DNA of 64,000 nucleotides, taken from positions 614,218-678,217 of the forward strand of contig NZ_KE150242.1 in NCBI RefSeq assembly GCF_000411115.1, in the 5' to 3' direction. The position numbers and the translations under genes were made by a program. The first letter of the stretch is position 1; each line of letters begins with the position of its first letter. The notes beneath the pieces were generated by a model. The model made no database searches and was not told the DNA's origin. It was given only the letters and a program-made list of their open reading frames with translations. This stretch comes from Capnocytophaga granulosa ATCC 51502 (GTDB lineage Bacteria > Bacteroidota > Bacteroidia > Flavobacteriales > Flavobacteriaceae). Shown in pieces: positions 4,906 through 48,316 of the stretch.

Positions 4906-4916
4906 GATAGAGAGAA

Positions 4917-6880: not shown

Positions 6881-6884
6881 TAAG

Positions 6885-8944: not shown

Positions 8945-8947
8945 AAA

Positions 8948-9835
8948 ATGATCTCTATTATTATAGTAAATTACAACACCAAACAGCTCACTTTGGATTG
9001 TATCAGATCTATATATAAATATACAAAAGATATTGATTTTGAGGTGATTGTAGTAGATAATGCCTCTTCAGATAATTCTGTTGAGGCTATTAGAGAATCT
9101 TTCCCTATAGTAAATGTAATAGAGCCTAAAGAAAATTTGGGTTTTGGTAGAGCTAATAATCTTGGAGCTAAATATGCTCAAGGTGAATACTTATTTTTAC
9201 TCAATAGTGATACCTTACTTATAGAAAATAGTATTAAAAAACTATATGACTTTTATACAGAGAATCAAGAAAAACTTCATATTGGGGTCTTGGGATGCAC
9301 TTTAGTAGATAAAGATTTAAATCTCATACATTCTGGAGGTGATTTCCCCACAATCAGTAGATATATCTTTGATCATCCTTTTCGTGTTATAAATAAAATA
9401 TTTAAAACAAATAAGAGTACATTCAAAAAATATTCTTATAATAATCCTATAACTAAAATAGATATGGTAACAGGAGCTGATATTCTTCTATCCAAAGAAA
9501 TATTTAATAAAGTAGGAGGCTTTGATGAGCGTTTTTTCCTTTATTATGAAGAAACAGATATGGAATATAAGCTTACAAAGTTAGGATATACTCACTATAT
9601 CATAAATACCACAAAAATTATTCATTTGGAGGGAGGAAGTATGAGCTATTCCAATTGGAAACGAAAAATAATACAAAATAGTCAGACTCTTTATTTCAAA
9701 TTAAATCACTCTAATCTCTTTTGGATATATGGAATATTTGAACTATTGATGACTCCTCTTAGATTCTTACAATTCAAATATTCTTTTGAAGAGAATTTAG
9801 ATTTTGTGAAAAGTAATTTTAAAAATATCTTTTAA
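8948..9835 (+). CDS. Family 2 glycosyltransferase
   Basis: A 295-residue GT-A fold enzyme. It starts MISIIIVNYNTKQLTLDCI, with VVDNASSDNS for nucleotide-sugar binding, the DxD-like FLLNSDT near residue 95, and GGFDERFFLYYEETDMEYKL later, a pattern common in rhamnosyl- and other deoxysugar transferases of the WcaE/RfbF type. It would add one sugar to the lipid-linked repeat unit at the cytosolic face. The donor cannot be told from sequence. Confidence 0.85.
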   Translation: MISIIIVNYNTKQLTLDCIRSIYKYTKDIDFEVIVVDNASSDNSVEAIRESFPIVNVIEPKENLGFGRANNLGAKYAQGEYLFLLNSDTLLIENSIKKLYDFYTENQEKLHIGVLGCTLVDKDLNLIHSGGDFPTISRYIFDHPFRVINKIFKTNKSTFKKYSYNNPITKIDMVTGADILLSKEIFNKVGGFDERFFLYYEETDMEYKLTKLGYTHYIINTTKIIHLEGGSMSYSNWKRKIIQNSQTLYFKLNHSNLFWIYGIFELLMTPLRFLQFKYSFEENLDFVKSNFKNIF

Positions 9836-9855
9836 AGATATACATAGATAGTAAG

Positions 9856-11049
9856 ATGAAAGAAGAAATAGATGCTTATAAAGGGTGTAAATTAATCCTT
9901 TTCATAAATATTTTTTATATTACTATATCATATTTATATGCCCTAATAAGAAGAGAATATAACGGAGATTTCTTAGATATTCCTGTTAATTTGAATCCCT
10001 TTTTTTTATCTTTTGTATGGATAATCTCTATAATTCCTTTCTTAGGACTATGGTTATTATATAAAAAATATAAAAAAAAACACATTCCTTACAAAAAAGT
10101 TTATATAAGTATAGGATTTGTGAAAATGTTTGTCTTTATATTATTAATATCTCATATTTTTGTCACATTAGTTTTTGGCGTTGGAAAGGCTGGTTTTTCT
10201 GTATACCAAGCCCCTTCTTTTATTAAATTTTTTATACAAATATTACTGCGCTTTGATTCTACTATGTGGGGCGTTTTCTTGATATTTATATGCTCTAAAA
10301 GAGATTATACAACTCTCTTATGGACAATTCTACTATTGAGCATTTTAGGAATAACGAGGGCGTCAATGGGATTTCTCTTTTTTACCTTTTGGATAACTAT
10401 TATAAAATACAATAAAGAACTTTTACATTTTTTGAAAAAATATTTTTTTATAATATGTATAATAATTCCCACATTCCCTTTTTTTGTAGAATTTGCGTAT
10501 AATCAGAGAGATATTCTTAGAAAAGCAGGAGATGGAAATATAAAATATGATAAAAACACTCTTTTGGCTGGAAAGTTAGTCGGAAGATTATCTAGTTTTT
10601 CTAATACTGCTATACTTATAGATAAAGGTATTTATTATTATATAATTGCACAAGATTTTGATACTTTTTTTTATCAAAAAAATATGCTTATAATGATTAA
10701 TGGGAGTGTCTTCAGTAAAAAGGATGTGCCAGAAAAAGTACTTATTGAAAATGGACCTGAGAATGCTTCCTTTATGTTAGGAACCTCTGGGATTTTAATT
10801 TTTTCACTTTATAAATCTACAACTTCTTTCTTTATTAATTTATTTTCTATCATTATTATATGTATTCTAGTATTCAAAATATTAAAGACCATTAATTTTT
10901 CTATGAATAACGAATATGCTTTTTTTATATTATTGGGTCCTATTCTAAGTGGTGTTGGTCTAGAATATTTCGCCTGTTTATTAAACGCTATCATATTGTT
11001 TATAACTTTACTTTTTTTTAGAGCTTTTAAAAAATTACAATTAAACTAA
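9856..11049 (+). CDS. Wzy-like polysaccharide polymerase (predicted)
   Basis: A 397-residue integral membrane protein with about ten hydrophobic segments, including a cluster of very hydrophobic stretches at the C-terminus. One soluble loop of about 100 residues (roughly 205-310) sits between helices, as in O-antigen polymerases. There is no sharp motif; the call rests on topology, size and place in the operon with a Wzx gene. It resembles the oligosaccharide repeat unit polymerase (EpsG/Wzy) group in general character. The extreme AT content and low identity expected of Wzy agree. Confidence 0.65.
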   Translation: MKEEIDAYKGCKLILFINIFYITISYLYALIRREYNGDFLDIPVNLNPFFLSFVWIISIIPFLGLWLLYKKYKKKHIPYKKVYISIGFVKMFVFILLISHIFVTLVFGVGKAGFSVYQAPSFIKFFIQILLRFDSTMWGVFLIFICSKRDYTTLLWTILLLSILGITRASMGFLFFTFWITIIKYNKELLHFLKKYFFIICIIIPTFPFFVEFAYNQRDILRKAGDGNIKYDKNTLLAGKLVGRLSSFSNTAILIDKGIYYYIIAQDFDTFFYQKNMLIMINGSVFSKKDVPEKVLIENGPENASFMLGTSGILIFSLYKSTTSFFINLFSIIIICILVFKILKTINFSMNNEYAFFILLGPILSGVGLEYFACLLNAIILFITLLFFRAFKKLQLN

Positions 11050-11053
11050 TTTT

Positions 11054-12193
11054 ATGAAACAAGTTATATATATAAATTCTTATGCCAATAAAAAACATCA
11101 CGAATTATTTAATACTGCTGTACTAATTGCATTAAATAATTTTAATATCAAATTATACTCTGGTAAAAGATCTAAAAATAATATGATATTTCTATCTAAA
11201 GAAAACGGATTTAAACTGAATTTCAATAATATAAAAAGTACTAACCTATTTATATTAGAAGGAAATTCTAGATGGACTAATTTTTTTAAATATATTTTAG
11301 GCACTTTATATAATATATATATATTGTTATCTTCTAATAAAAATGATATCCTTATATATAATTTCAACAATTCTCTATCCTTGTATTTTTTGAATAAACT
11401 AAATTCTCTCTTAAAGAGAAAAATACTTATCTTCTGCCATGGAGAGATGGAATTATTAATTAACAATGAAGGAGGAGGGCTTGCAAAACTTCTAAAATGG
11501 AATCTTAGAAATTTTTTTCTAAGAAAAAGAAATATTTATATTTCATTCTGTGTCTTAGGTGATTGTGTGATAGAAAATCTAAAAAATATAATAGGAGAAA
11601 ATATTAAATATTTTTACAGTATTGATCATCCCTATTTTTTTAATAAAAATATTGATGAAAACATTAATAATAAAAATAATGTAGTGTCTTTTGCTACAAT
11701 TGGTGAATTAAATATTTTTAAAGGACTATATTCTTATATAAATCTTTTAGAAAAAGTCAATATGAAAGATAAATCTTTTTCTATAATAGGTAACACAAGT
11801 GATCATGTAGAAGAACTCAAAAAGAAAAATATTATTTTAAGGGGAAAGGATAATTATTTAGATCGAAAAGATTTTGAAAACCTAATTTCAAAAATAGATT
11901 ATGCTCTATATTTCTATTCATCCAACAAATATAAACTAACTGCAAGTGGAGCTATTTTTGATGCTATCAACGCTAGAAAACCCATTATAGCATTAGAGAA
12001 TGATTATTTCAGATACCTTTTCAAAAAATATGGGACAATTGGATATCTTTGTAAAAATATAGACGAAATGGCAGAGGTAATCAACAATATAAAAAAAGAA
12101 AAGAAAACTATTTTTAATTTTGATAATTATATCAACCAACTATCTATAGATTCTTTTACAAAAAATTTTTTAAATATTATAGAAAGAATGTGA
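11054..12193 (+). CDS. Divergent glycosyltransferase (GT-B-like), unassigned family
   Basis: A 379-residue soluble protein that I cannot place in a named family. The C-terminal half has features of a GT-B nucleotide-sugar domain: FATIGELNIFKGL near residue 215 and TASGAIFDAINARKPIIALE near residue 300, similar to the region that binds the donor in GT4 enzymes. The N-terminus (MKQVIYINSYANKKHHELFN) lacks the usual glycine-rich loop. It is among the most AT-rich genes in the window. Its position between the polymerase and a GT2 gene makes a sugar transferase in the same pathway the best guess. Confidence 0.6.
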   Translation: MKQVIYINSYANKKHHELFNTAVLIALNNFNIKLYSGKRSKNNMIFLSKENGFKLNFNNIKSTNLFILEGNSRWTNFFKYILGTLYNIYILLSSNKNDILIYNFNNSLSLYFLNKLNSLLKRKILIFCHGEMELLINNEGGGLAKLLKWNLRNFFLRKRNIYISFCVLGDCVIENLKNIIGENIKYFYSIDHPYFFNKNIDENINNKNNVVSFATIGELNIFKGLYSYINLLEKVNMKDKSFSIIGNTSDHVEELKKKNIILRGKDNYLDRKDFENLISKIDYALYFYSSNKYKLTASGAIFDAINARKPIIALENDYFRYLFKKYGTIGYLCKNIDEMAEVINNIKKEKKTIFNFDNYINQLSIDSFTKNFLNIIERM

Positions 12194-12195
12194 TT

Positions 12196-12930
12196 ATGTC
12201 AACTCCAAAGATTTCTGTTTGTATAGCTACCTACAATGGTGAAAAATACATAAAAGAGCAATTAGAATCTATTATACATCAATTAGATGAAGATGATGAA
12301 ATCATTATATCTGATGATGGATCAAATGATAAAACTATCCAAATAATAGAAAACTTTAAAGATACTAGAATTAAAATTTTTAATCATTCTCCCAATAGGA
12401 AAACAAAATATAAATTTGATTTAACTACTCGAAATATAGAAAATGCTCTTTCTAAAGCACAAGGGGATTTTATTTTTTTAGCAGATCAAGATGATATTTG
12501 GATAAAAAACAAGGTTGAAAAAATAATACCTTTCTTTGAAAAATATAGTTTAATACTACATGATTGTACTATAATAAATGATTCCAAAAAGGTATTACAT
12601 GAATCATATTTTAAATTAAATAAATCAAGAACAGGTGTTGTCAATAACCTTATAAAAAATTCCTATTTAGGATGCTGTATGGCTTTTAGGAAAAGTATTT
12701 TAAAAAAATCTATTCCTTTCCCTACATCTCCTATTCCACATGATATTTGGATAGGATTGATTGCTGAACTTAAAGAGAATGTTTTCTTTTGTAATGAAAA
12801 ATTAATCCAATATAGAAGACATGAAAATAATTTGTCTTCATCGTCATCAAAAAGCAACAATTCTATTTATTTTAAATTAAAATATAGATTTTTTATTTTG
12901 AAAAATTTAATCAAAAAACTATTTATATGA
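12196..12930 (+). CDS. Family 2 glycosyltransferase
   Basis: A 244-residue GT-A enzyme starting near MSTPKISVCIATYNGEKYI, with IISDDGSNDKT (nucleotide binding) and FLADQDDIW, the DxD motif near residue 95. A GTG at 12190 in the same frame overlaps the upstream stop by 4 bases and may be the coupled start; the ATG at 12196 is given. It resembles short rhamnosyltransferase-type GT2 proteins. The stop overlaps the next gene's ATG by 4 bases. Confidence 0.82.
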   Translation: MSTPKISVCIATYNGEKYIKEQLESIIHQLDEDDEIIISDDGSNDKTIQIIENFKDTRIKIFNHSPNRKTKYKFDLTTRNIENALSKAQGDFIFLADQDDIWIKNKVEKIIPFFEKYSLILHDCTIINDSKKVLHESYFKLNKSRTGVVNNLIKNSYLGCCMAFRKSILKKSIPFPTSPIPHDIWIGLIAELKENVFFCNEKLIQYRRHENNLSSSSSKSNNSIYFKLKYRFFILKNLIKKLFI

Positions 12931-14045
12931 AAATCTTACATATAGGAAAATTCTATCCTCCTTATTTTGGGGGGATTGAAAAGGTTAATTATGATATTGT
13001 AGAGGGTTTGAATACAAAAGGTATTCAAACGGATGTATTGTGTTCTAATTATACCAAGGGAAACTCTTTTTCAGAAATTCCCTATAAAATATATAGAACT
13101 CACACTTTAAAAGTTATAGCTTCTACCCCATTAAGTTATAGTCTTATAACAACTCTAAAGAAGATTCAAGACAATTATGATATTATCCATGTCCATTTAC
13201 CTAATCCTATGGCTAACTTAGCTATCTTTCTTACACGTCCCAAGAGTAAAATTATTTTGCATTGGCATAGTGATATCATAAAACAAAAAAAATTATTAAA
13301 ACTATATAGTCCTTTACAAACTTGGTTATTAAAGAGAGCTGATAAAATAGTTACTACTACTCCTACTTACTTAGAAGGTTCCAATACTTTAAAAAAATAT
13401 AAAAATAAAATAGTATGTATTCCTATTGGTATTGATAACAACGAATTATTCATAGACCAAAATACTTTAAATAGCCTAAAAAACAAATATAAAGGATATA
13501 AAATAATTTTTAGCTTAGGAAGACTTGTTTATTATAAAGGTTTTGAATATTTAATAGAAACAGTAAAATCTTTACCCAATGATATTATCATTCTAATAGC
13601 AGGTATTGGCGAATTAAAAGAAAAATTACAAGAACACATTTCTAAACATAATTTACAAGATAGAGTAAAACTCTTAGGAAAAATACCTTTTGAAGAGTTA
13701 GGAGCTTATTACCAGCTTTGTGATATATTTTGTCTCCCTTCTACCGAACGATCAGAAGCTTTTGGAGTAGTACAAATCGAAGCTATGGCTTTTGGAAAAC
13801 CTGTTATTTCTACAAGTATCAAAGGTTCAGGGGTTGATTGGGTAAACCTCAATAATGTATCAGGTATTATAGTGCCTCCTAAAGATACTAACAGATTGAC
13901 AGAAGCTATTATGGAATTACTTACTGATGAAAAGAAATATCAACTGTTATCAATAGGTGCTAAAAAAAGATATGAAGAAGTATTTACAAAAGATAAAATG
14001 GTAGATAGTTTTAAAAGTCTCTATTTAGAAATATTAGAATCTTAA
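12927..14045 (+). CDS. Family 4 glycosyltransferase
   Basis: A 372-residue GT-B enzyme. The acceptor domain begins MKILHIGKFYPPYFGGIEKV. The donor domain has FSLGRLVYYKGFEYLIE near residue 190 and the E-x7-E region PSTERSEAFGVVQIEAMAFG near residue 275, all classic GT4 features. It is the last gene of the polysaccharide operon; the next gene has its own promoter box at 14068. Mannosyl- or related transfer is likely but not shown. Confidence 0.88.
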   Translation: MKILHIGKFYPPYFGGIEKVNYDIVEGLNTKGIQTDVLCSNYTKGNSFSEIPYKIYRTHTLKVIASTPLSYSLITTLKKIQDNYDIIHVHLPNPMANLAIFLTRPKSKIILHWHSDIIKQKKLLKLYSPLQTWLLKRADKIVTTTPTYLEGSNTLKKYKNKIVCIPIGIDNNELFIDQNTLNSLKNKYKGYKIIFSLGRLVYYKGFEYLIETVKSLPNDIIILIAGIGELKEKLQEHISKHNLQDRVKLLGKIPFEELGAYYQLCDIFCLPSTERSEAFGVVQIEAMAFGKPVISTSIKGSGVDWVNLNNVSGIIVPPKDTNRLTEAIMELLTDEKKYQLLSIGAKKRYEEVFTKDKMVDSFKSLYLEILES

Positions 14046-19820: not shown

Positions 19821-22800
19821 ATGAAGAAGAGAAAACATATTTTAGGATTAGATTTGGGTACCACCTCTATCGGTTTTTCGCATATTATAGAGGATGAAGA
19901 CCGAGAAAAATCAACTATTGAAGAAATTGGAGTTCGTATTATTCCTCTAAGTGTAGATGAATTATCTAATTTTGAAAGAGGAAAAACTATTAGTACTAAT
20001 GCAGATAGAACTCTTAAACATGGGGCAAGAACAAACCTTGATCGCTATCAATTAAGACGAAAACAACTCATCGAATTATCAATTCAAGCAGGTCTTATTA
20101 CCTCTTCTACAATCTTAGCTGAAGATGGGAAAAACACGACCCACTCTACTTGGCAATTGAGAGCTAAAGCTGCTGTTGAACGGATCGAAAAAGATGAATT
20201 AGTAAGAGTTTTCCTTGCTATTAATAAAAAACGAGGTTATAAAAGTAGTAGAAAAGTTAAAAATAAAGATGATGGACAGATAATAGATGGAATGGCTATT
20301 GCCAAACGTCTATATGATGAGAATTTAACTCCTGGTCAATTAGTATTGCAACTATTAAAAGAAAAGAAAAAGCAACTTCCTGATTTTTATCATTCAGACT
20401 TGCAAAAGGAATTTGACCTTATTTGGAATTTTCAAAAGGAATTTTATCCTGAAATCTTAACAAATGACCTTTACAAGGCTTTGCAAGGAAAAAACAAAAC
20501 TGATTCCTCAAGTATTTTCTATAATTATTATCATTTCAATACTGCTGAAAACAGAGGTACTAAAGAACAAATGCGATTGCAAGCATATCGTTGGAGAGTA
20601 GATGCTCTTTCCAAAAAAACTCTCAAAAGAAGAAGTTGCTTATGTTTTGGTCGAAATAAATAGTAATCTAAACAATAGTAGTAACTATCTAGGAAATATT
20701 TCAGATAGAAGTAAGGAACTCTATTTCAATAAGCAAACGATAGGACAATTTTTATATACAAAACTGAAAGAGGATAGACACTATAGTCTTAAAAATAAAG
20801 TATTTTACCGGCAAGATTATTTAGACGAATTTGAGCGTATTTGGGAGACACAAGCTATTTTTCACAAAGAACTTACAGAAGATTTAAAAAAACAGATCCG
20901 AGATACCATAATTTTCTATCAACGCAGACTTAAATCACAAAAGGGATTAATCTCTCTTTGTGAATTTGAAAATAAAGAGATTACTATTGAAAAAGAAGGA
21001 AAAACTGTCACTAAGCAGATTGGAGTTCGTGTCATTCCCAAATCATCTCCCCTATTTCAAGAATTCAAAATTTGGCAAATCCTCAATAATGTTATTTGTA
21101 AAAAGAAAGGAACTCGAAAAAAGAAAGCTGTTACACCTGCTCCTTTGCTTTTTGAATTATTCGGCACACCCTCTGAAACATTCTTTAGCTTAGATATGGA
21201 GTGTAAGCAACTTCTTTTTGAGGAACTTAACCTAAAAGGTAACCTAAAAGCAGATAAAGTAATCCGTTTATTAGGTTATATTCCTCAAGAATGGGAAATC
21301 AATTACAACCAATTAGAAGGAAATAGAACTCAAAAATCACTTTATGAGGCTTATTTGAAGATTATTGAGATAGAGGGGTATGATATAAAGACCTTTTTGA
21401 GAATAAAATCAGATAAAGAGGATTGGGATTTAGAAGAATCTCCTCTTTCTGCAAAGGAAATAAGAGAAAATATACAACATATTTTTGAAACATTAGGTAT
21501 CAGTACAGCAATACTATATTTTGATGCTACTCTACCTATTAAAGACTTTGAAAAACAGGCTTCTTATCAACTTTGGCATTTACTTTATTCTTATGAAAGT
21601 GATAATTCTCCTTCTGGTAATGAAACACTTTACAAATTATTACAAGATAAATTCGGTTTCAAAAGAGAACATGCTGTGTTTCTTTCAAACATATCATTTC
21701 AAGATGATTATGGTAGTCTCTCGGCGAAAGCCATTCGTAAAATATATCCTTATATAAAGGAGAACCAATATAGTACTGCTTGTGAATTAGCAGGATATAG
21801 GCACTCCAAACTTTCTTTAACAAAAGAAGAACTGAATAATAGGCCACTAAAAGACCTAATTTCTCCACTAAAGAAGAATAGTTTAAGAAATCCTGTTGTA
21901 GAAAAAGGTCTCAACCAAATGATTAATGTCGTAAATGCATTAATAGAAAAAAATAGTGAGAAGGATGCTGAAGGAAACATCATTAAGTACTTCCATTTTG
22001 ATGAAATTCGTATAGAATTAGCCCGTGAACTAAAGAAAAATGCACAAGAACGAGCTGAAATGACCCTAAATATAAAGAATGCTACCATAGAACAAGAAAA
22101 GATTAAGAGTATACTTATCTCAGATTTTGGAATCAAAAATCCTACTAAAAATGATATCACTCGTTATCGATTATATCAAGAGTTAGCTCATAATGACTAT
22201 AAGGATCTATATACAAATACCGATATTCCTAAAGAACTATTGTTTAGTAAGAATATTGATATTGAACATATCGTTCCTAAAGCAAGAGTGTTTGATGATA
22301 GTTTCTCAAATAAGACATTAGCCTACAGAGATTTCAATCTCAAAAAAGGAGAAAATACAGCTTTTGATTTTATAGATTCTTCTTTAGGTGAAGAAGAACT
22401 TAACCAATATATTGCAAGAGTAGAAAATGCCTTTAAAACTAAAAACATTTCAGCTACCAAGTATAGAAATTTACTAAAAAAAGCAACCGAAATTAACGAC
22501 GGTTTTATCAACAGAGACTTGAGAGAAACTCAATATATAGCCAAAAAGGCGAAGGATCTACTTTTCCAAATAACTAGAAGTGTTGTTAGCACATCAGGAA
22601 GTATTACCGATAGGTTACGTGAAGATTGGGGACTAATAGATATCATGAAAGAACTAAACATGCCTAAATACAGGGATTTAGGACTTACTGAAATAATAGA
22701 GCGTAGAGATGGTAGAAAAGTAGAAGTGATAAAAGACTGGACAAAGCGTAATGACCATCGTCATCATGCTATGGATGCGCTTACTGTTGCCTTTACCAAA

Positions 22801-24132
22801 CCCTCTTATATACAATATCTCAATCATCTGAATGCCCGAAAAGATGAAAACAATAAACTATATGCTGATATTTTAGGTATAGAAAGAAAAGAAACTACTA
22901 AAATACACGATGAAAATGGTAATGAAAAAAGGGTTTTTATAGAACCAATACCAGGTTTTAGACAAATAGCTAAAAAATATTTAGAAGAAATACTCATTTC
23001 TCATAAAACAAAAAATAAAGTAGTTACCAAAAGTATAAATAAGATAGCTGGTACAAATAAAAAACAAGAAACACTTACACCACGAGGGCAACTACATAAA
23101 GAAACTATATATGGCAAATATCATTATTATAGTAATAAAGAAGAAAAGATAGGCACAAAATTTGATAAAGAAACTATTTCAAAAGTATCTAATCCTATTT
23201 ATCGATATGCGTTACAAAAAAGATTAGAAGCAAATGAAAATAATCCCAAAAAAGCATTTACAGGAAAGAATGCCCTTTCTAAGAATCCTATCTATTTGGA
23301 TGATGCTAAAACTAAAATTTTACCAGAGAAAGTAAATCTTATTTATTTAGAGGAAGATTTTTCTATAAGAAAAAAAATAGTCTCTGAAAATCCTACCTCC
23401 AAAGAATTTGTTCCTAACTCAATATCTATTGAAAAAATAGTAGATGAAGGTATAAAGCGTATCCTTAAAGAAAGACTTGAAACTTATAACAATGACCCTA
23501 AAAAAGCCTTTGCTGATTTAGATAAGAATCCTATTTGGCTCAACAAAGAGAAAGGAATTTCAATCAAGCGAGTTACTATCAGTGGTGTAAAGAATACTCA
23601 AGCCTTACATAGTAAGAAAGATCACCTAGGAAAACCTATCTTAGACAAAGAAGGGCAAGAGATCCCTGTAGATTTTGTAAGTACAGGTAATAACCACCAT
23701 GTTGCCATTTATCGTGATCAAAAAGGAAATTTGCAAGAACAAATCGTCTCCTTCTTTGAAGCTGTTGTGCGTGCTCAGCAAGGACTTCCTATCATAGATA
23801 AAACTTACAAACAAGAAGAAGGTTGGCAATTCTTATTCACCATGAAACAGAATGAGATGTTTGTATTCCCTAACGAAATAACTGGATTTAACCCTTCTGA
23901 AATAGACCTATTAGATCCAAAAAATAAGAAATTAATAAGTCCAAACTTGTTTAGAGTACAAAAAATATCTATTAAGGATTATTTCTTCAGACATCATTTG
24001 GAAACTAATGTGGAGACTAATAATATTTTGAAAGATATCACTTGGAAGCGAGGAGGATTATCTCTTTTAAAAGGTATTATAAAAGTTCGTATTAATCATT
24101 TAGGAAATATAGTAAGTATTGGAGAATACTAA
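19821..24132 (+). pseudogene. cas9: Cas9, type II-C, interrupted by a one-base frameshift
   Basis: Two overlapping frames together encode one Cas9 of about 1436 residues. The first (19821-20663) has the RuvC-I motif ILGLDLGTTSIG with the catalytic Asp at residue 11, and the arginine-rich bridge helix (about residues 60-86). At 20613-20619 a run of seven A's shifts the frame; with six A's the protein would read ALSKKLSKEEVAYVLVEINS, the normal Cas9 sequence. The second part (in frame from 20620 to 24132) has RuvC-II IRIELARELK (Glu about 732), HNH DIEHIVPKA...FSNKTL (His about 816, Asn about 830) and RuvC-III HRHHAMDAL (His about 981, Asp about 985). About 440 C-terminal residues follow, carrying the PAM-interacting region. 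All catalytic residues survive, so the break is recent, a sequencing error, or a phase-variable tract. As written, no full-length nuclease is made. Confidence 0.93.
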
Positions 24133-24689: not shown

Positions 24690-26231
24690 GTTGTTTGAGG
24701 TCACAAAGTTACAAATTTGAAAGCAACTCACAACTGTTTTGTGCTACATAAATATCTATATCAGTTGTTTGAGGTCACAAAGTTACAAATTTGAAAGCAA
24801 CTCACAACTTTGCTAAGAACGAAGCCAACCAAGCGGGCGTTGTTTGAGGTCACAAAGTTACAAATTTGAAAGCAACTCACAACATTGTCAAGATAGCCAC
24901 CGAAAGTGGGGGGGGTGTTTGAGGTCACAAAGTTACAAATTTGAAAGCAACTCACAACAAAATGTATTGATGTTAGTGCCATAATTGGGTTGTTTGAGGT
25001 CACAAAGTTACAAATTTGAAAGCAACTCACAACCCTACTCAACGACAAAGGGCAGGCTGTGGAGTTGTTTGAGGTCACAAAGTTACAAATTTGAAAGCAA
25101 CTCACAACGGTGATTCTCGAAAGCGAGTTTTTTATACAGTTGTTTGAGGTCACAAAGTTACAAATTTGAAAGCAACTCACAACCCCTCCTCTTTCTCCTT
25201 CAGTTCCTTTTCCGTTGTTTGAGGTCACAAAGTTACAAATTTGAAAGCAACTCACAACGCAGTTTGGGAAGGTTCGGATGAGGAAAAGTTGTTTGAGGTC
25301 ACAAAGTTACGAATTTGAAAGCAACTCACAACGCTGTGTAGGATCAGGCGCTCCCCATCCACTGTTGTTTGAGGTCACAAAGTTACGAATTTGAAAGCAA
25401 CTCACAACGTTGTTCTTGGTCAATGATAAATCAGCATGGTTGTTTGAGGTCACAAAGTTACGAATTTGAAAGCAACTCACAACGGCCGCCACGTTGTGTT
25501 GTTTGCTTCTTGGGTTGTTTGAGGTCACAAAGTTACAAATTTGAAAGCAACTCACAACGCTCAGGTCGTCGATTTACTCAGAAACTTGGTTGTTTGAGGT
25601 CACAAAGTTACGAATTTGAAAGCAACTCACAACTTATCTGCCCGTTCATGTCCTTGACTATCGGTTGTTTGAGGTCACAAAGTTACGAATTTGAAAGCAA
25701 CTCACAACGGCAAAGGCTCTTAGTTCATATTTACGTTGGTTGTTTGAGGTCACAAAGTTACGAATTTGAAAGCAACTCACAACGCGCTCCGCTGTACCCT
25801 CTTTCCGATGAAGTTGTTTGAGGTCACAAAGTTACGAATTTGAAAGCAACTCACAACAGGATTGGTAATGATGGCTGTTTTCATCTCGTTGTTTGAGGTC
25901 ACAAAGTTACGAATTTGAAAGCAACTCACAACATAACTTTTTTATATCCTCCTCCCTATCTGTTGTTTGAGGTCACAAAGTTACGAATTTGAAAGCAACT
26001 CACAACGGCTAAGTACTTATCCTTCATCTCAGATAGGTTGTTTAAGGTCACAAAGTTACGAATTTGAAAGCAACTCACAACATTTCCAAACTCATCTTGA
26101 AAAGTAACCTTGTTGTTTGAGGTCACAAAGTTACGAATTTGAAAGCAACTCACAACATATTCTTGTTTAATTTTGACAGTGCAAAAGTTGTTTGAGGCCA
26201 CAAAGTTGCGAATTTAAAAATAACTCACAAC
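24690..26231 (-). CRISPR. CRISPR array, 21 repeats of 45 bp, 20 spacers of 29-31 bp
   Basis: Repeats begin at 24690, 24764, 24839, 24914, 24989, 25064, 25139, 25214, 25288, 25364, 25439, 25514, 25589, 25664, 25739, 25813, 25888, 25962, 26037, 26112 and 26187. On the minus strand each repeat reads GTTGTGAGTTGCTTTCAAAT, then TTGTAACTTTGTGACCTCAA, then ACAAC. Transcription is inferred to be on the minus strand because the 5' end of the repeat in that sense pairs with the tracrRNA anti-repeat. Each repeat contains TTG-N19-TAACTTTG, a full Bacteroidota promoter. Repeats 1-8 and 12 carry ACAAATTT on the plus strand and the others ACGAATTT. Repeat 4 differs at its second base and repeat 19 has one change. 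The last repeat (26187-26231) is degenerate, with several changes. Spacers are all different, and I saw no target within this window. Confidence 0.97.
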
Positions 26232-26310
26232 AATACTTATACTAATTCATGTTTTACAAGTTGATTTTAATATACAATTAACATATTTAGATGTAACAGC
26301 ATAACGAATA

Positions 26311-42548: not shown

Positions 42549-42908
42549 AAAAATTACATTTCTCTAATCAAGGGCTATATTACGTTTTTTTCTTCGATTA
42601 AAAAAGTTTTTTAACTGAAAAAATCAATGATAATTATCAAAACTTCTCGTTTATTTATAAACAACTCAAATTTCGTAGATTATATTCAAATGATTATAAA
42701 AATTAATAAACCCCAATAATTAATCTAGAATTATTCATACAAATCTAAACGATCCCTTTTAAATATTTACCTAAAATAGAGACTAAAATATATTATTAAA
42801 AATCAACGCATTAGACAACCTTTTTATACTTAAAAAATATTTCTAATTATTATATTTTTTATTTCTATTTTTTTTCTATTTTTGCCAAACAAACAAATCT
42901 ATTTTAAG
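42549..42908. other. AT-rich intergenic region, no gene seen
   Basis: This 360-base stretch between divergent genes is very AT-rich. It holds the -7 box for the rSAM operon at 42877-42884. I found no tRNA, clear hairpin or convincing precursor-peptide frame. It could hold additional regulatory sequence. Confidence 0.6.
42877..42884 (+). promoter_or_regulatory. -7 promoter box for the GT-radical SAM operon
   Basis: TATTTTTG fits TAnnTTTG, 24 bases before the ATG at 42909. The alternative in-frame start at 42882 overlaps the box and is unlikely. Confidence 0.55.
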
Positions 42909-45209
42909 ATGCATATTTTAAAAATTATTCATGGTTATCCCCCCCAATACAATGCTGGTTCTGAAGTTTATAGTCAATCCATCTGTAATGAACTGTCAAA
43001 ACACCATAAAATATCTGTATTTACAAGAGAGGAAAATCCCTATGCACCTTGTTTTTCTATCAGAGAAAAAAAGGTTAATAAAAATTTAACTCTTTATCTA
43101 GTAAATCATCCACAAGGGAAAGATGGTTATAGGCATCAACAAATAGATGATGTTTTCACTTCTTTATTAGAGAAACTTCGACCTGACATTGCTCATATAG
43201 GTCATTTAAACCATCTTTCCACAGGATTAGTTGATGTATTAAATCAATTTGAAATCCCTATTATATATACACTACATGATTTTTGGTTAATGTGTCCAAG
43301 AGGACAGTTCCTAACCAGAAGTATAGGTAAAGTTGAAGGCAATTTTCAGTTATGTACTCATCAAGATAATAAGAAATGTGCAATAGATTGCTATAAAGTA
43401 TATTTTAGTGGAATAAAAGATAATGAAGCAAGTGATACTAAACAATGGGAAACATGGGTTCGCCAACGAATGCAGGAAACTAAAAAAATTGTTGACAAAG
43501 TAGATTTGTTTATAGCACCTTCCCAATATCTAAAATATCGTTTTGAAAAAGATTTTCATATCCCAAAAGAAAAGATTATCTACTTAGATTACGGTTTTCC
43601 TACTGATTATTTAATACCTACAGAAAAAACAAAAAAGAAAGAACCCTATACTTTTGGATATATAGGTACTCATATACCTGCAAAAGGTATTAATCTATTA
43701 ATAGAAGCGTTTAAAAAAACAGAAAAACCTGCTATTCTTAAAATATTTGGAAGAGAAAATGGACAAAGTACCAAAGCCTTACGAGCAATGGCTTCTTCTT
43801 CAAAAAATGAGATAGAGTTCTTAGGTGAATATATAAATCAAAATTTGGTGAATGATGTCTTTTCTAAAGTTGACTGTATAGTGGTTCCTAGTATTTGGGG
43901 AGAAAACTCTCCCTTGGTAATTCACGAAGCTCAAGCCTGCAAAATTCCTGTAATTACAGCAAATTTTGGAGGAATGAAAGAATATGTAGCCCATAATGTA
44001 AATGGTTTATTATTTAAACATAGAGATGTAGACTCTTTAGTAGAACAATTAAATTTTGCTATATCAAATCCTAAAAAAATGGAAGAATTAGGAAATGTTG
44101 GCTATTTATATTCAGCAAACGGAGCAATCCCTAATATAGAAGAGCATTGTATGCAACTAGAAACTATTTACCAAAATCATATTTCTAAAAAATATAAATT
44201 ATGGCGAATAACTCTTGATACTAATCCAGAGGATTGCAATTTGAGTTGCACTATGTGTGAGGAACATAGCCCTTTCTCTAAATTTATCAAAGAAAAACTA
44301 AATGGGAAAAGGCGTAGAATGCCAAAAGAATGGTTAGAAAATATCTTTCAACAGGCTAAAACATTAGGTGTGAAAGAAATTATACCTTCTACTATGGGAG
44401 AACCTTTACTATACAAACATTTCGCTTATATAGTAGAACTTTGCTATAAATATAATATCAAAATGAATCTGACAACTAATGGCACTTTCCCTAAAACTAC
44501 AGAAAAAAGTGTTACTGAATGGGCAAAATTATTAGTTCCTATAACTACAGATGTAAAAATAAGTTGGAATGGAGCTACTGCACAAACGGCTCAAAAAATA
44601 ATGTTAAAGATTAATTTTGATGAAGCTCTTGCTAATGTAAAAGAATTTATTCGTATTCGTAATGAACACTTTAAAACAATAGGACATAAATGTAGAGTCA
44701 CTTTTCAGCTAACTTTTATGCAAAATAACATGCATGAATTAGCAGATATAATAGCTTTGGCAGCTGAATTGGATGTTGATAGAGTGAAAGGCCATCAGCT
44801 TTGGGCTCACTTTAATGAGATAAAAAATTTATCAATGAAACATTCTACTGAAAGTATCTTACAATGGAATAAATATGTAAGACAAGCGCATGAAGCTCAA
44901 GAAAAATATAGAAAACCTAATGGAGAAAAGGTGATTTTAGAAAACATTATCCCAATTGAAATAAACGAATCGCAAGAAATACCTGAGAATTACAATTGTC
45001 CCTTCTTAGGAAAAGAATTATGGATTTCTCCTACAGGCAAAATTTCTCCTTGTTGTGCTCCAGATGAGATGCGACAGACATTGGGAGATTTCGGCAATAT
45101 AGAAAACAATACTATTGAAAGCATCTTAAACAGTAAAAATTATACTGATTTAATTTCTACCTACAAACAAATTCCTTTATGTAAAACTTGTAATATGCGT
45201 AAACCATAA
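42909..45209 (+). CDS. Glycosyltransferase (GT4)-radical SAM/SPASM fusion protein
   Basis: A 766-residue two-part enzyme. Residues 1-420 are a GT-B glycosyltransferase: MHILKIIHGYPPQYNAGSEV, IYTLHDFWLMCPRGQF, FGYIGTHIPAKGINLLIEAF near residue 250, and the donor-binding PSIWGENSPLVIHEAQACK near 330. Residues about 430-766 are a radical SAM enzyme: CNLSCTMC with Cys 443, 447 and 450 binding the 4Fe-4S cluster, TMGEPLLYKH, NLTTNGT, and a SPASM-like tail with ISPTGKISPCCAPDEM and CKTCNMR for a second cluster. Fused glycosyl and radical SAM activities suggest that one substrate is both glycosylated and radically modified. Substrate and product are unknown. It is the first gene of a four-gene overlapping operon. 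Confidence 0.85.
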   Translation: MHILKIIHGYPPQYNAGSEVYSQSICNELSKHHKISVFTREENPYAPCFSIREKKVNKNLTLYLVNHPQGKDGYRHQQIDDVFTSLLEKLRPDIAHIGHLNHLSTGLVDVLNQFEIPIIYTLHDFWLMCPRGQFLTRSIGKVEGNFQLCTHQDNKKCAIDCYKVYFSGIKDNEASDTKQWETWVRQRMQETKKIVDKVDLFIAPSQYLKYRFEKDFHIPKEKIIYLDYGFPTDYLIPTEKTKKKEPYTFGYIGTHIPAKGINLLIEAFKKTEKPAILKIFGRENGQSTKALRAMASSSKNEIEFLGEYINQNLVNDVFSKVDCIVVPSIWGENSPLVIHEAQACKIPVITANFGGMKEYVAHNVNGLLFKHRDVDSLVEQLNFAISNPKKMEELGNVGYLYSANGAIPNIEEHCMQLETIYQNHISKKYKLWRITLDTNPEDCNLSCTMCEEHSPFSKFIKEKLNGKRRRMPKEWLENIFQQAKTLGVKEIIPSTMGEPLLYKHFAYIVELCYKYNIKMNLTTNGTFPKTTEKSVTEWAKLLVPITTDVKISWNGATAQTAQKIMLKINFDEALANVKEFIRIRNEHFKTIGHKCRVTFQLTFMQNNMHELADIIALAAELDVDRVKGHQLWAHFNEIKNLSMKHSTESILQWNKYVRQAHEAQEKYRKPNGEKVILENIIPIEINESQEIPENYNCPFLGKELWISPTGKISPCCAPDEMRQTLGDFGNIENNTIESILNSKNYTDLISTYKQIPLCKTCNMRKP

Positions 45210-46639
45210 TGAAACAAACAGAAACTATACAGAAACTTAAAACTATTTTCTCTAAAATAGAAGGAATAGAATTTGCCATTCTTTATGGCTCTTTTGCTAG
45301 AGGTTCAGCAACAGCTAATTCAGATATTGATATTCAAATATTGGTAACCTCATCTTTTGATATAAATAATTTTATTTCAGTTATTGAAAAATGCTTTCAA
45401 GAAAATATTTTTTCTGTAAGAAAACTAGAAGTAAAACATAAAATTATAGCCTATTTTCTATATAGTCCAAAAATAGAATTTAGCTTTTATACAGAATCCA
45501 AAGATATTAATAGGTTCTATGTAGGGTCAGAAATCATGAATGTTGATAGAACTATTCTATATGCTAATAATTCTTGGAAAAATAAACTTATTACCTATTT
45601 AAGGAAAATTACAGAGAACAAAAATGATATTAATACATCTAAATATATAGATGAATTAGTAGATGAATTTATCTATCAATTTGAAAATGCCTCAACCATG
45701 CATAAGAGAAGTGATGCCTATCAGTTCTATTTCTTTTACAATATAGCCCTACATAAAGCCATACAACTTCATCAACTGTCTATAGGAAATACACAATTCA
45801 ATTTCCTACCCAAACGTTTTGTAAGTAGTCTTCCTAATGATGATAAACGTAAAGAGATATATGAGCTACATGGTGAAATATTACTAACAAAGGCTAATAG
45901 GCAGAAGAGAAAATTATTAGATTTTTTTTACAAAACACTTACTAATCTTGTAACAGAAAAACAAAAAGAAGAGGTGAAAAATTTCTGTGAATATATCTAC
46001 AAAAGAGATTATTTTTGGAATTTTAGAGATATAAGCCTTTATAATCCATTGATAAAAAAAGGAATTATATATAGAACAGCTAATTTTGTCTCTTTTTTAG
46101 AGAGTGATTTCTTTGAAGAACTTATTAGAGATACCAATATAAAAACAATTATTGAGTTACGTGCTAATAGAGAAATTAAAGAACTTCCCTATCCAACATC
46201 TTTTACTCAGAATTTTAAATATGTATTAGCTCCTTTTGATCCTTGGGAACAGCCAGACTGGTTCAAAGAACATTACCACTATGGTACAGACATAGAAATA
46301 GCTTATCGTTTTTTCTTATTATGCTGTAAAGATAGTATTCGTACTGCTATGCTTTCAATCCTGAAAGAAGATAGGGGAGCTATTGCTATTCATTGTTTTG
46401 CGGGGAAAGATAGAACAGGTATCTTAATCTCTCTTCTACACTTATTAGTTGGTGCCAATATGGAGATAGTTTATGAAGATTATTTAGCAAGTGAAGTAGA
46501 TACTGAAATCTCAAAACTTAATGCCGCCCTTGAAGTCATAACCAATGAAGGCGGTATCATTCCTTATTTATTGAGTTGTGGTTTGCAACAAGAAGAAATA
46601 ATATCTCTAAAAGAAAAATTGACTGCTAATGAGAAATAA
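45209..46639 (+). CDS. Nucleotidyltransferase-phosphatase (PtpB-like) fusion protein
   Basis: A 476-residue protein. Residues 1-110 are a minimal nucleotidyltransferase with LYGSFARGSATANSDIDIQ: the GS at 27-28 and Asp 39/41 would bind metal and nucleotide. A helical middle part (about 140-250) is of unknown type. Residues about 265-476 are a phosphatase of the Tyr_phosphatase3/PtpB family: NFRDIS near the start of the domain, IIELRANREI, and the active-site loop HCFAGKDRTGI with Cys 396 and Arg 402. It could attach and remove a nucleotide or phosphate on the operon's substrate, or modify a protein. Start overlaps the previous stop (TAATG). Confidence 0.83.
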   Translation: MKQTETIQKLKTIFSKIEGIEFAILYGSFARGSATANSDIDIQILVTSSFDINNFISVIEKCFQENIFSVRKLEVKHKIIAYFLYSPKIEFSFYTESKDINRFYVGSEIMNVDRTILYANNSWKNKLITYLRKITENKNDINTSKYIDELVDEFIYQFENASTMHKRSDAYQFYFFYNIALHKAIQLHQLSIGNTQFNFLPKRFVSSLPNDDKRKEIYELHGEILLTKANRQKRKLLDFFYKTLTNLVTEKQKEEVKNFCEYIYKRDYFWNFRDISLYNPLIKKGIIYRTANFVSFLESDFFEELIRDTNIKTIIELRANREIKELPYPTSFTQNFKYVLAPFDPWEQPDWFKEHYHYGTDIEIAYRFFLLCCKDSIRTAMLSILKEDRGAIAIHCFAGKDRTGILISLLHLLVGANMEIVYEDYLASEVDTEISKLNAALEVITNEGGIIPYLLSCGLQQEEIISLKEKLTANEK

Positions 46640-47582
46640 ACTTAAATCATTTTTCACTGAGTATTGGGGATATTTAGCTGTAAGTACTGCTTGCGAACTA
46701 AATTTATTTGATGCTTTAAAAGTTCCAAAAACAGCCAAACAATTAGCAAATGAATTATTCTTATATGAAAAAACATTATTTCACCTATTAGAGGCTTTAG
46801 CAAACATAAAATTCTTAACTAAGAAAGAAGATTTATATAGCATCAATAGTTTATCGGAGTTCCTAACGGAAGATCATTCTGAAAGCCTCAAATATGCTTG
46901 CTTGAATTGGAGTAAGGAGCACCTTAGAGCATGGCAAGAACTACCATATTCTATAAAAACAGGCAAAAATGCTTTTGAGAAAATATACGGACTCCCTTTC
47001 TTCGATTATTTGGACGAAAACCCAAAAGAATTAAACAATTATCACAAAGCAATGTATCAATATGCAAAAGATGATTATAAAAATCTCCCTAACATTATTG
47101 ATTTTAGTAAACATAACTCAATAATAGATGTGGGAGGGGGGTATGGTGCTCTTATCAACAACATTCAATCAAAGTATCCTACTTTAAAATGTATTCTATT
47201 TGATTTAGAGAAAGTAATAGAAAAAGTATCTGCTACTAATATACAAAAAATAGGAGGTAGTTTTTTTGATCCAATACCAACAAAAACAGATGCTATTATT
47301 CTTTCAAGGATATTACATGATTGGAATGATAAGAAAGCTCTACAAATACTTAAAAACTGTTTTGATGCCTTAAATGATGATGGCACCTTGTATGTTATTG
47401 AAAATTGCATTGATAAAACAGAAATAGATATTTCTCTTTTATCTTTAAATATGGCTGTTATATGCGAGAGTTATGAACGAACGTCAAAAGAATATTGTTT
47501 ACTTGCTGATAAGAGAAATTTTAAATTTTGTCAAGAAATAAAATTGAATGAATTACAAAATATCTTAATATTTAAAAAATGA
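46629..47582 (+). CDS. SAM-dependent O-methyltransferase (Methyltransf_2 type)
   Basis: A 317-residue protein with an N-terminal winged-helix dimerisation domain (residues about 10-80, TAKQLANELFLYEKTLFHLL). The class I methyltransferase domain has SAM motif SIIDVGGGYGALINNI near residue 160, ILFDLEKVIEKV, and ILSRILHDWNDKKALQILKN near residue 220, where HD is the catalytic pair of O-methyltransferases of the hydroxyindole/polyketide type. It overlaps the upstream gene by 11 bases and the downstream gene by 4, so it is certainly co-translated. Small-molecule rather than nucleic acid methylation is suggested. Confidence 0.85.
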   Translation: MRNKLKSFFTEYWGYLAVSTACELNLFDALKVPKTAKQLANELFLYEKTLFHLLEALANIKFLTKKEDLYSINSLSEFLTEDHSESLKYACLNWSKEHLRAWQELPYSIKTGKNAFEKIYGLPFFDYLDENPKELNNYHKAMYQYAKDDYKNLPNIIDFSKHNSIIDVGGGYGALINNIQSKYPTLKCILFDLEKVIEKVSATNIQKIGGSFFDPIPTKTDAIILSRILHDWNDKKALQILKNCFDALNDDGTLYVIENCIDKTEIDISLLSLNMAVICESYERTSKEYCLLADKRNFKFCQEIKLNELQNILIFKK

Positions 47583-48286
47583 ATTGGAAAGATATAAAAA
47601 TAACACAGAATAATACTTCTTTTCTATATAATGGAAATATTTTGTTCAATAAGAAATTTATAGAAGTACTAAAGTTTCATGATCCAGGACTTGCTCCTGT
47701 ATTAGATGAGAGTGGTGCTTATCATATCACTACTGAAGGAGAACCTCTTTATACTTGTAGATATAAGAGAACTTTTGGGTTCTATGATAAAAGAGCAGCT
47801 GTAATTGATGATAATAATAAATGGTTTCATATTAATGAAAAAGGAGAAAGAGTATACTCAAAAAATTTTCTATGGGTTGGTAATTATCAAGAAAATTACT
47901 GTACCGTAAGAGATGAACAAAATAAATATTATCATATTGATTTATTAGGTAATGAATTGTATATGGAGAGATATGCCTATGCAGGGGACTATAAAGATGG
48001 AATAGCTTGTGTACGTTTATATAATAATTATTTTAAACATATTGATTTACAAGGGAATTATGTTAATGATAAACAATTTATTGATTTGGGAGTGTTTCAC
48101 AAAAATTTTGCTACTGCGAGAGATTCAAAAGGATGGTTTCATATCAATAAAAAAGGAGAGGCCTTATATAATGAAAGATATTTACTTATAGAACCTTTTT
48201 ATAATGGTCATGCTTTGATTACAACATTTGAATATAAAAAGAAGATTATAAATGAAAAAGGAGAAATAGTCTTTCTTATTCCTTAA
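47579..48286 (+). CDS. WG-repeat protein
   Basis: A 235-residue soluble protein made of about seven WG-type beta repeats (for example NNKWFHINEKGERVYSKNF, QNKYYHIDLLGNELYMERY, SKGWFHINKKGEALYNERY). Such repeats form beta-propeller-like or extended binding surfaces and have no known catalysis. No signal peptide is seen, so it is probably cytosolic. As the last gene of the operon it may present or bind the substrate of the enzymes encoded upstream. Confidence 0.85.
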   Translation: MNWKDIKITQNNTSFLYNGNILFNKKFIEVLKFHDPGLAPVLDESGAYHITTEGEPLYTCRYKRTFGFYDKRAAVIDDNNKWFHINEKGERVYSKNFLWVGNYQENYCTVRDEQNKYYHIDLLGNELYMERYAYAGDYKDGIACVRLYNNYFKHIDLQGNYVNDKQFIDLGVFHKNFATARDSKGWFHINKKGEALYNERYLLIEPFYNGHALITTFEYKKKIINEKGEIVFLIP

Positions 48287-48316
48287 ATTATATTTTGTAA
48301 TTTCCTAAAAAATAAT

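What the first reader, a model, noticed from the sequence alone, without database searches (positions are those of the whole stretch)
42909..48286. Four-gene operon joining GT4-radical SAM, nucleotidyltransferase-phosphatase, O-methyltransferase and WG-repeat proteins
Four genes overlap or abut (by 1, 11 and 4 bases), follow one promoter box and are flanked by housekeeping genes (rel/spoT, purH). They are visibly more AT-rich than their flanks. Seen directly: CxxxCxxC plus SPASM-like cysteines, an NTase GS...DxD motif, HCxAGKDRTG, a DVGGGYG SAM motif and WG repeats. Established: these families act in glycan, RiPP or small-molecule modification. Inference: they modify one common substrate, possibly a glycan-linked or peptide product, in an undescribed pathway. 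No precursor peptide was found nearby.
Basis: partly seen in the sequence, partly recalled or inferred. Interest (0 to 1): 0.85.

Follow-up and report, generated by a model that had tools for sequence, protein, structure and literature searches.

The report
Sugar-transferase/radical-enzyme gene cassette shared with Wolbachia
Four neighbouring genes in an oral-type bacterium form a mobile gene cassette, probably for making a small sugar-containing compound, and its two central proteins also occur side by side in a mysterious gene island carried by a Wolbachia virus, so that island's unknown function could be studied in a free-living bacterium.

Summary
Four genes (42909-48286) overlap by 1, 11 and 4 bases, are AT-rich (27-31% GC) and encode GT4-radical SAM, nucleotidyltransferase-phosphatase, O-methyltransferase and WG-repeat proteins. 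The cassette sits between rel and purH; in the three nearest Capnocytophaga genomes those two genes are adjacent.

The gene set recurs. The GT4-rSAM is next to a WG gene in all 78 evaluable loci of 81, across several phyla. In one sample of 395 Bacteroidota genomes both occur in the same two. Accessory genes vary: phosphatase (two unrelated superfamilies, never together), methyltransferase, carbamoyltransferase. The window's full set occurs in 10 of 81 loci. Of 53 Bacteroidota-type loci 30 carry an RtcR-like or shortened regulator; the window does not.

The core is not new to print: it is WD0613-WD0614 of the Wolbachia phage WO "Undecim Cluster", and an earlier paper lists Capnocytophaga granulosa homologues. 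No product was found in print. Best reading: a horizontally moved pathway for a small methylated glycoside. The rSAM tail is too short for a full SPASM and no dedicated precursor peptide was found, so a RiPP is less likely. New here: the two-gene core, the interchangeable phosphatase, the regulator link and the empty site.

The parts
42650..48306 (.). approximate extent of the inserted cassette between rel and purH
   Evidence: alignment of both flanks to the rel-purH intergenic region of three Capnocytophaga genomes, L087-L089, clearest with L087; edges uncertain by tens of bases
42877..42884 (+). TATTTTTG, possible Bacteroidota -7 promoter box
   Evidence: sequence; consensus TAnnTTTG recalled; not tested
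42909..45209 (+). gene 1: GT4 glycosyltransferase (about aa 1-425) fused to radical SAM (about aa 430-690) and a C-terminal five-cysteine SPASM/twitch-like segment (aa 697-766)
   Evidence: EX7E (E332/E340), CX3CX2C (C443/447/450), GEP 497-499 and C697, C715, C716, C758, C761 invariant in 20 aligned sequences, window included
45209..46639 (+). gene 2: nucleotidyltransferase (Polbeta/NTP_transf_2) + middle part without Pfam match + DSP/PTP-type phosphatase (HCFAGKDRTG)
   Evidence: G27 S28 D39 D41 E90 and H395-G404 invariant in 14 aligned sequences, window included
46629..47582 (+). gene 3: SAM-dependent O-methyltransferase (Methyltransf_2 with dimerisation domain)
47579..48286 (+). gene 4: WG-type repeat protein with one conserved His in most repeats (H49, H84, H119, H154, H188)
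   Evidence: AlphaFold2 mean pLDDT 96.5, pTM 0.86

Best explanation
A horizontally moved metabolic cassette that makes a small methylated glycoside, or hangs one on a small acceptor. Proposed order: the GT4 domain transfers a sugar from a nucleotide-sugar to a (probably phosphorylated) acceptor; the fused radical SAM domain oxidises, epimerises or rearranges that sugar or its aglycone; a phosphatase (here the C-terminal half of gene 2) removes a phosphate; the methyltransferase caps a hydroxyl; the WG protein holds the substrate for the GT4-rSAM and the methyltransferase. The NTase half of gene 2 may nucleotidylate an intermediate (activation or self-protection). Shown: gene content, intact sequence motifs, linkage, fusions, phosphatase swapping, an empty site in relatives. 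Inferred: horizontal movement, substrate class, order of steps, roles of WG and NTase.
For: GT4-rSAM and WG adjacent in 78 of 78 evaluable loci (the other 3 of 81, L037, L044, L080, lie at contig ends) and present in the same 2 of 395 Bacteroidota genomes (one of the two was the centre of the sample). Among phage and plasmid records every record that matches the WG protein also matches the GT4-rSAM. Their distance matrices correlate (r = 0.93, 65 loci). WG is fused to the methyltransferase in other phyla and in phage WO. GT4 and rSAM are separate neighbouring ORFs in L042, L060, L074, L080. Among 53 Bacteroidota-type loci 27 have the PTP-type and 24 a His_Phos_1-type phosphatase, none both, 2 neither; 9 changes between the two on the GT4-rSAM tree (55 labelled rows; 18.05 on average with shuffled labels). 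Accessories in some loci are small-molecule or sugar enzymes: carbamoyltransferase (4 of 81), epimerase-type (13 of 81), PhyH oxygenase (5 of 81), and single cases of UDPGT and MsbA-like ABC transporter looked at. In a Heimdallarchaeota MAG (L060) the order is epimerase, GT4, rSAM, WG, carbamoyltransferase, histidine phosphatase, second rSAM, methyltransferase-NTase fusion. Gene 1 ends 5 residues after CX2C, so the tail lacks the last SPASM cysteines and fits one auxiliary cluster, as in small-molecule twitch enzymes (rule recalled).
Against: No nucleotide-sugar maker or exporter in the window's operon. 18 of 78 loci lack a detected phosphatase, Rickettsiales and cyanobacteria among them. The rSAM's best solved relative by sequence is 5v1q (E 1.3e-06, called only 'Radical SAM'; recalled to be SuiB, a peptide-modifying enzyme), and a full-length SPASM Pfam hit can be read as peptide-type. 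Carbamoyltransferase and the other accessories are each in a minority of loci. Many loci are MAG contigs. No product was found described for any member.
Confidence: 0.5

Rival explanations
1. Surface-glycan cassette: the genes build or decorate lipopolysaccharide or exopolysaccharide, as proposed for part of the Undecim Cluster.
For: PMC9203015 and PMC4701759 suggest EPS/LPS or surface roles for WD0611-WD0613; GT4 enzymes commonly work there (recalled); a polysaccharide-type gene region lies at about 3.6-14 kb of the window (ORFs named by eye); an MsbA-like transporter beside one Rickettsiales locus.
Against: The cassette is not in the glycan region but between rel and purH; no flippase, polymerase or ligase gene was noticed beside it in the window; radical SAM, carbamoyltransferase, NTase and phosphatase are unusual for a chain-building set (recalled).
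Confidence: 0.2
2. RiPP or protein modification: GT4-rSAM glycosylates and crosslinks a small peptide; candidates are the 42-47-aa hydrophilic peptides or the 31-47-aa Pro/Gly-rich peptides encoded upstream of the gene in some loci.
For: 45-aa peptide family near the gene in 12 loci by ORF clustering or 13 of 81 by tblastn; Pro/Gly-rich peptides in 5 loci; in 395 genomes the 46-aa query's best hit lies 62 bases from the one independent GT4-rSAM; SPASM Pfam hit and 5v1q similarity.
Against: Absent from the window and from most loci; weaker relatives sit in two genomes that lack gene 1, in other contexts (L113, L114); shortened SPASM. RiPP proteases and recognition domains were not searched for as such; none appeared among the neighbours annotated.
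Confidence: 0.15
3. RNA-damage or conflict response: the cassette makes a protective or toxic modification (of RNA or a small molecule) on a signal read by the RtcR-like CARF regulator.
For: RtcR-like or shortened sigma-54-activator gene divergently upstream in 30 of 53 Bacteroidota-type loci; the one full-length form tested (L002) matches PADLOC RtcR_PspF1 at 1.9e-80; a TGGCA element 19-56 bases before the first gene in 11 of 16 full-length-regulator loci against 0.28 expected, shuffled maximum 3; NTase resembles MntA weakly (32.6 bits, cut-off 60); one upstream small protein matches DUF4258 below its cut-off (20.8 of 25 bits).
Against: No regulator beside the window operon nor within 2.6 kb upstream in any of the distant-phylum loci; the regulator is below the NCBIfam RtcR cut-off (166.6 of 650); a full -24/-12 site is significant in only 5 of 34 regulator regions against 2 of 46 controls; with the shortened regulator TGGCA is in 3 of 18 (0.33 expected, shuffled maximum 4); no RNA-binding or nuclease domain in the four proteins; PADLOC gives the four window proteins only generic rSAM and NTase matches.
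Confidence: 0.12

Closest known systems
Undecim Cluster of Wolbachia phage WO (WD0611-WD0621), core WD0613-WD0614 (PMC9203015, PMC4701759: passages read)
   Same: WD0613-type GT4-rSAM (47% identity, full length) directly followed by a WG protein (48% over 215 aa); WG fused to a methyltransferase there, separate here
   Different: No PhyH, aldolases, exporter or epimerase in the window operon; adds an NTase-phosphatase; chromosomal in a free-living-type bacterium, not in a phage or endosymbiont
WD0613-WD0614 homologues listed for Capnocytophaga granulosa (WP_016419668, WP_016419671) in PMC4701759
   Same: very likely the same gene pair: accession numbers three apart leave room for genes 2 and 3 (inference from numbering only)
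   Different: that paper speaks of 'potential syntenically arranged homologs'; the passages read do not mention an NTase-phosphatase or a four-gene operon
NCBIfam TIGR04157 glyco_rSAM_CFB (GT of radical SAM cassettes of Bacteroidetes; description recalled)
   Same: GT4 similarity, 53 bits
   Different: far below its cut-off of 400 bits; not a member
GT4 + phosphatase pathways for small glycosides (for example mycothiol, sucrose phosphate; recalled)
   Same: GT4 family (NCBIfam MshA 42 bits and BshA 49 bits, far below cut-off) with a phosphatase beside it
   Different: radical SAM fusion, WG protein and NTase have no counterpart there (recalled)

Membership tests
Undecim Cluster | UC3-type GT-rSAM fusion | tested here: met
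   47% identity over the full length
Undecim Cluster | UC4-type WG-methyltransferase fusion | tested here: not met
   both parts present but as separate genes; WG 48%; methyltransferase similarity by BLASTP seen only to the Arsenophonus copy, 25%
Undecim Cluster | eleven contiguous genes UC1-UC11 | tested here: not met
   only UC3 and UC4 hit the operon; UC2, UC6, UC10 hit other places in the window; UC1, UC5, UC7, UC8, UC9, UC11 no hit at 1e-5
Undecim Cluster | location in phage WO or its islands | tested here: not met
   between rel and purH; no phage-like gene noticed by eye in the ORF list around it
Radical SAM superfamily | CX3CX2C cluster motif | tested here: met
   C443, C447, C450 invariant in 20 sequences
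Full SPASM (two auxiliary clusters; peptide-modifying type) | about seven C-terminal cysteines ending CX5CX3C | tested here: not met
   five cysteines, protein ends 5 residues after CX2C; rule recalled
Retaining GT4 glycosyltransferase | EX7E motif | tested here: met
   E332 and E340 invariant in 20 sequences
RiPP cluster | linked precursor peptide | tested here: not met
   none in the 500 bases upstream in the window; a candidate in a minority of other loci, with relatives in genomes without gene 1
TIGR04157 glyco_rSAM_CFB | score at or above the curated cut-off of 400 | tested here: not met
   53.3 bits
RtcR/sigma-54-controlled operon | adjacent RtcR-like regulator | tested here: not met
   absent beside the window operon; in 30 of 53 Bacteroidota-type loci

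The most novel reading that the evidence does not exclude
A new natural-product-like pathway whose two-protein core (GT4-radical SAM plus WG scaffold) has spread across Bacteroidota, Planctomycetota, Verrucomicrobiota, Myxococcota, Cyanobacteriota, Pseudomonadota, an archaeal MAG and phage WO, with an interchangeable phosphatase, and which in many Bacteroidota is switched on by RNA damage through an RtcR-like CARF regulator; the same unknown molecule class would be what the Undecim Cluster gives to Wolbachia hosts.
Probability: 0.25. Interest if true: 0.82.

Novelty: new variant of a known kind. Interest (0 to 1): 0.57.

Why it matters
The Undecim Cluster is duplicated in an obligate Wolbachia strain while other phage genes are lost (PMC12801941, passages read) and is reported as highly expressed (PMC9203015, passages read; PMC4701759 finds WD0612-WD0613 abundant but WD0614-WD0616 among the least abundant), yet its functions are called unknown and Wolbachia is an obligate intracellular bacterium. 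The core in Flavobacteriaceae with named strains (Bizionia echini L001, Flavobacterium lacus L002, Lacinutrix mariniflava L021, Algibacter pectinivorans L026) makes the question testable by deletion and metabolomics. This WG family gets a firm functional partner, and swapping of unrelated phosphatases predicts a chemical step.

Tried and rejected
Dedicated precursor peptide: none in the window. The 45-aa peptide looked specific at first, but relatives lie in G305 and G325, which have no gene 1 match at 1e-90, in contexts that differ from the cassette (ORFs read by eye), so it is not taken as the substrate. The 99-aa protein c5 had no hit in 326 genomes; the tool warned that an empty answer shows nothing.

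Mobile-element origin: 2 phage records (both Wolbachia phage WO; limit 1e-30) and 3 plasmid records (all Arsenophonus; limit 1e-60) match the GT4-rSAM, one IMG/VR contig holds a relative; no integrase or phage gene was noticed beside the window copy. Rickettsia buchneri aminoglycoside cluster (PMC8770908, passages read): a different gene set in the passages read, no link found. Bacteroidales RiPP survey (PMC10352776) and NTP-dependent conflict systems (PMC7159879): passages read, nothing on this gene set in them. Defence system: PADLOC gives the window proteins only generic rSAM and NTase matches. Canonical sigma-54 -24/-12 sites: P < 0.05 in 5 of 34 regulator regions against 2 of 46 controls, weak; only the -24-like TGGCA stood out, clearly only with the full-length regulator (the 16 include L044, whose regulator is cut by the contig end, and L031/L032, one contig held twice).

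Corrections made on the way: the ORF picker missed WG in GC-rich loci, put right by tblastn and agreeing (WG match in 13 of 13 genomes asked). The first phosphatase count (HisP 29, neither 22 of 78) was replaced by HMM searches (HisP 33, PTP 27, neither 18; checked again, where L072's hit lies in a 771-aa protein upstream of the core). Rows dropped: the three contig-end loci from the linkage and phosphatase counts; L032 (same contig as L031 in a second MAG) only from the tree, so it is counted in the other totals; loci with short or split genes from the tree (74 rows) and the distance test (65 loci). Regular-expression motif counts were partly ill-formed (the NTase pattern gave 0) and are not used. 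L042's methyltransferase was seen by tblastn but not as an ORF of its own. 'Bacteroidota-type' means the 53 evaluable loci outside the distant clade, the window included; it contains one locus titled Melioribacter and one unnamed bin.

Full report
OBSERVATION. The stretch is AT-rich (27-31% GC). Pfam gives GT4 + radical SAM + SPASM; Polbeta NTase + Y_phosphatase3; Methyltransf_2 with its dimerisation domain; WG repeats. The host is by inference a Capnocytophaga: its purH is 94% identical to that of one genome of the genus sampled around C. cynodegmi (L074, G001); all 20 genomes of that genus asked have a purH match.

AN INSERTED CASSETTE. The gene 1 query matches 1 of 20 genomes of that genus, the C. 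cynodegmi genome itself. In the three genomes closest by purH (L087, L088, L089; 94, 86 and 85%) rel and purH lie next to each other with 160-223 bases between the matched ends; the other 17 loci show purH but no rel match within about 1.5 kb on either side, so they do not test the site. The window's left flank aligns to the empty site up to about 42650 and its right flank from about 48307, most clearly with L087, so about 5.7 kb has been inserted here, or lost in the three relatives; insertion is the simpler reading given the sporadic distribution.

RECURRENCE. A scan of one genome per species gave 80 loci, the best of 154 confirmed relatives. Most are Bacteroidota (about 58-76% identity); others are Planctomycetota, Verrucomicrobiota, Myxococcota, Cyanobacteriota (Hormoscilla), Pseudomonadota (Rickettsiales, gammaproteobacterial MAGs), Electryoneota and a Heimdallarchaeota MAG (45-50%). 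Many are MAG contigs, whose labels can be wrong. With the window that makes 81. By tblastn, WG lies beside the GT4-rSAM in 78; the remaining three (L037, L044, L080) lie at contig ends. The methyltransferase was detected in 43 of 81, the PTP-type phosphatase in 27, the NTase in 23, the carbamoyltransferase in 4. The full set GT4-rSAM, NTase, PTP, methyltransferase, WG occurs in 10 of 81, window included: L011, L026, L031, L032, L033, L035, L042, L051, L076 and the window; L031 and L032 are one contig in two MAGs; HMM searches add L027. The exact quartet is therefore one variant; the pair GT4-rSAM + WG is the core.

COUPLING. In a sample of 395 Bacteroidota genomes gene 1 occurs in 2, gene 4 in the same 2 and gene 2 in 1 of them; one of the two is the genome around which the sample was drawn, so the independent find is 1. 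In 50,697 phage records gene 1 matches 2 (both phage WO, one a short record cut inside the gene) and gene 4 one of these; in 72,556 plasmid records both match the same 3 Arsenophonus records. Distances of the GT4-rSAM and WG proteins correlate at r = 0.93 over 65 loci; relatedness alone gives part of that. GT4 and rSAM are separate neighbouring ORFs in L042, L060, L074 and L080. WG is N-terminal in a longer protein in 13 distant loci; the rest is methyltransferase by tblastn and by Pfam for L054 and, weakly, phage WO.

PHOSPHATASE SLOT. Between gene 1 and the methyltransferase/WG genes, or behind WG, there is a PTP-type enzyme (as here), or an unrelated His_Phos_1 protein (Pfam: L001; L060; others by HMM). 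Among 78 evaluable loci 33 have the histidine type, 27 the PTP type, none both, 18 neither; among the 53 Bacteroidota-type loci 24, 27, 0 and 2. An earlier tblastn count gave Fisher p = 3e-11 for exclusion in that group, without correction for relatedness. On a quick tree of 74 GT4-rSAM proteins the two states need 9 changes over 55 labelled rows; shuffled labels need 18.05 on average and at least 12, so the state is inherited in part but has switched repeatedly; weakly supported forks make 9 approximate. Replacement of one phosphatase by another suggests that a dephosphorylation, not a particular protein, is needed. In L060 the NTase domain is fused to a methyltransferase, so an NTase recurs apart from the fusion seen here, though in only this one locus without a PTP.

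REGULATION ELSEWHERE. In 30 of 53 Bacteroidota-type loci a divergent gene upstream encodes an RtcR-like protein or a shortened form. The one full-length form tested (L002) scores 1.9e-80 against PADLOC RtcR_PspF1 (CARF-AAA-HTH) but is below the cut-off of NCBIfam RtcR (166.6 of 650). TGGCA, as in a -24 box, lies 19-56 bases before the first gene in 11 of 16 full-length-regulator loci (shuffled mean 0.28, maximum 3 in 1000) and in 3 of 18 shortened ones (mean 0.33, maximum 4). A full -24/-12 match is not generally present. The window has none of this.

ACTIVE SITES. In 20 aligned sequences (window, 18 loci, phage WO; 45-76% identity to the window) E332/E340, C443/C447/C450, GEP 497-499, C697, C715, C716, C758, C761 and four N-domain cysteines C129, C149, C157, C161 are invariant. 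Gene 1 ends five residues after C761, so the last cysteines of a full SPASM are missing; from recalled rules this means one auxiliary cluster (twitch type), more usual for small-molecule enzymes. In gene 2, G27, S28, D39, D41, E90 and the HCFAGKDRTG loop are invariant in 14 sequences. In gene 4 seven histidines, five of them about one repeat apart, are at least 95% conserved in 69 sequences; AlphaFold2 gives pLDDT 96.5; no solved structure matches by sequence up to E = 1; fold comparison could not be run.

WHAT IS KNOWN. WD0613 of the phage WO Undecim Cluster is an N-terminal glycosyltransferase with a C-terminal radical SAM domain, and EPS/LPS, methylation and antibiotic-export roles of the cluster are predicted only (PMC9203015, passages read). 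PMC4701759 (passages read) describes WD0614 as a KWG-repeat/O-methyltransferase fusion, shows peptides for these proteins, and names Capnocytophaga granulosa, Haliangium, Desulfovibrio and Saprospira as holding potentially syntenic homologues. PMC12801941 (passages read) states that the functions are unknown and reports duplication in an obligate strain. Of the eleven phage WO proteins only UC3 and UC4 match the operon. The literature searches showed me no title or abstract on the phosphatase swapping or on an RtcR-like regulator with this cassette (listings seen; only the papers named here were opened); subscription journals are mostly outside that library.

MECHANISM. I commit to a small-glycoside pathway (0.5). 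For: sugar and small-molecule accessories in some loci, phosphatase need, shortened SPASM, lack of a dedicated precursor. Against: no sugar-nucleotide maker or exporter beside the window copy, similarity of the rSAM part to 5v1q, and 18 loci without a detected phosphatase. Surface glycan (0.2), peptide or protein (0.15) and RNA-damage response (0.12) remain; the last concerns control and could hold together with the first.

VERDICT. Real, conserved and, by its sporadic distribution, horizontally spread; core already known in outline from Wolbachia, product unknown; a new variant of that known kind, worth a wet test.

Noticed in passing
window 19821-24132: cas9-like gene in two overlapping ORFs in different frames (19821-20663 and 20602-24132), so it looks frameshifted (named by eye); described only, not mended. 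No ORF of 100 aa or more between it and the repeat array.
   Followed up: partly
window 24690-26261: CRISPR-like array: 21 copies of a roughly 45-base repeat at 74-76-base spacing.
   Followed up: partly
window 3586-14045: polysaccharide-type gene region, named by eye (UDP-sugar dehydrogenase matching UC10 at 41%, epimerase, UDP-galactopyranose-mutase-like, flippase-like, glycosyltransferases), strongly AT-rich from about 7 to 14 kb.
   Followed up: no
L003-L006, L011, L012, L014, L016, L025, L044, L047, L051 upstream of the GT4-rSAM: family of 42-47-aa hydrophilic peptides with a motif like NQGNRGKQLNPN; relatives elsewhere beside what look by eye like a MoxR-type AAA gene and an integrase (L113) or alone (L114).
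   Followed up: partly
L060 9047-17327: Heimdallarchaeota MAG contig with epimerase, split GT4 and rSAM, WG, carbamoyltransferase, histidine phosphatase, second rSAM/SPASM and a methyltransferase-NTase fusion.
   Followed up: partly
L047 and L048: two divergent copies of the cassette in one MAG (SZAS-3), one with the histidine-type, one with the PTP-type phosphatase.
   Followed up: no
L047 12289-12975, L012 12296-12982, L073 1031-1735, L074 12299-12978: accessory 229-235-aa protein carrying a DWDT motif (no Pfam match for the L047 copy), possibly a GT-A glycosyltransferase; in two ORFs in L074.
   Followed up: no
L083 7852-10187: GT4-rSAM copy on an Arsenophonus plasmid shows stops when read straight and has no annotated gene under it, although its WG-methyltransferase neighbour is open.
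   Followed up: no
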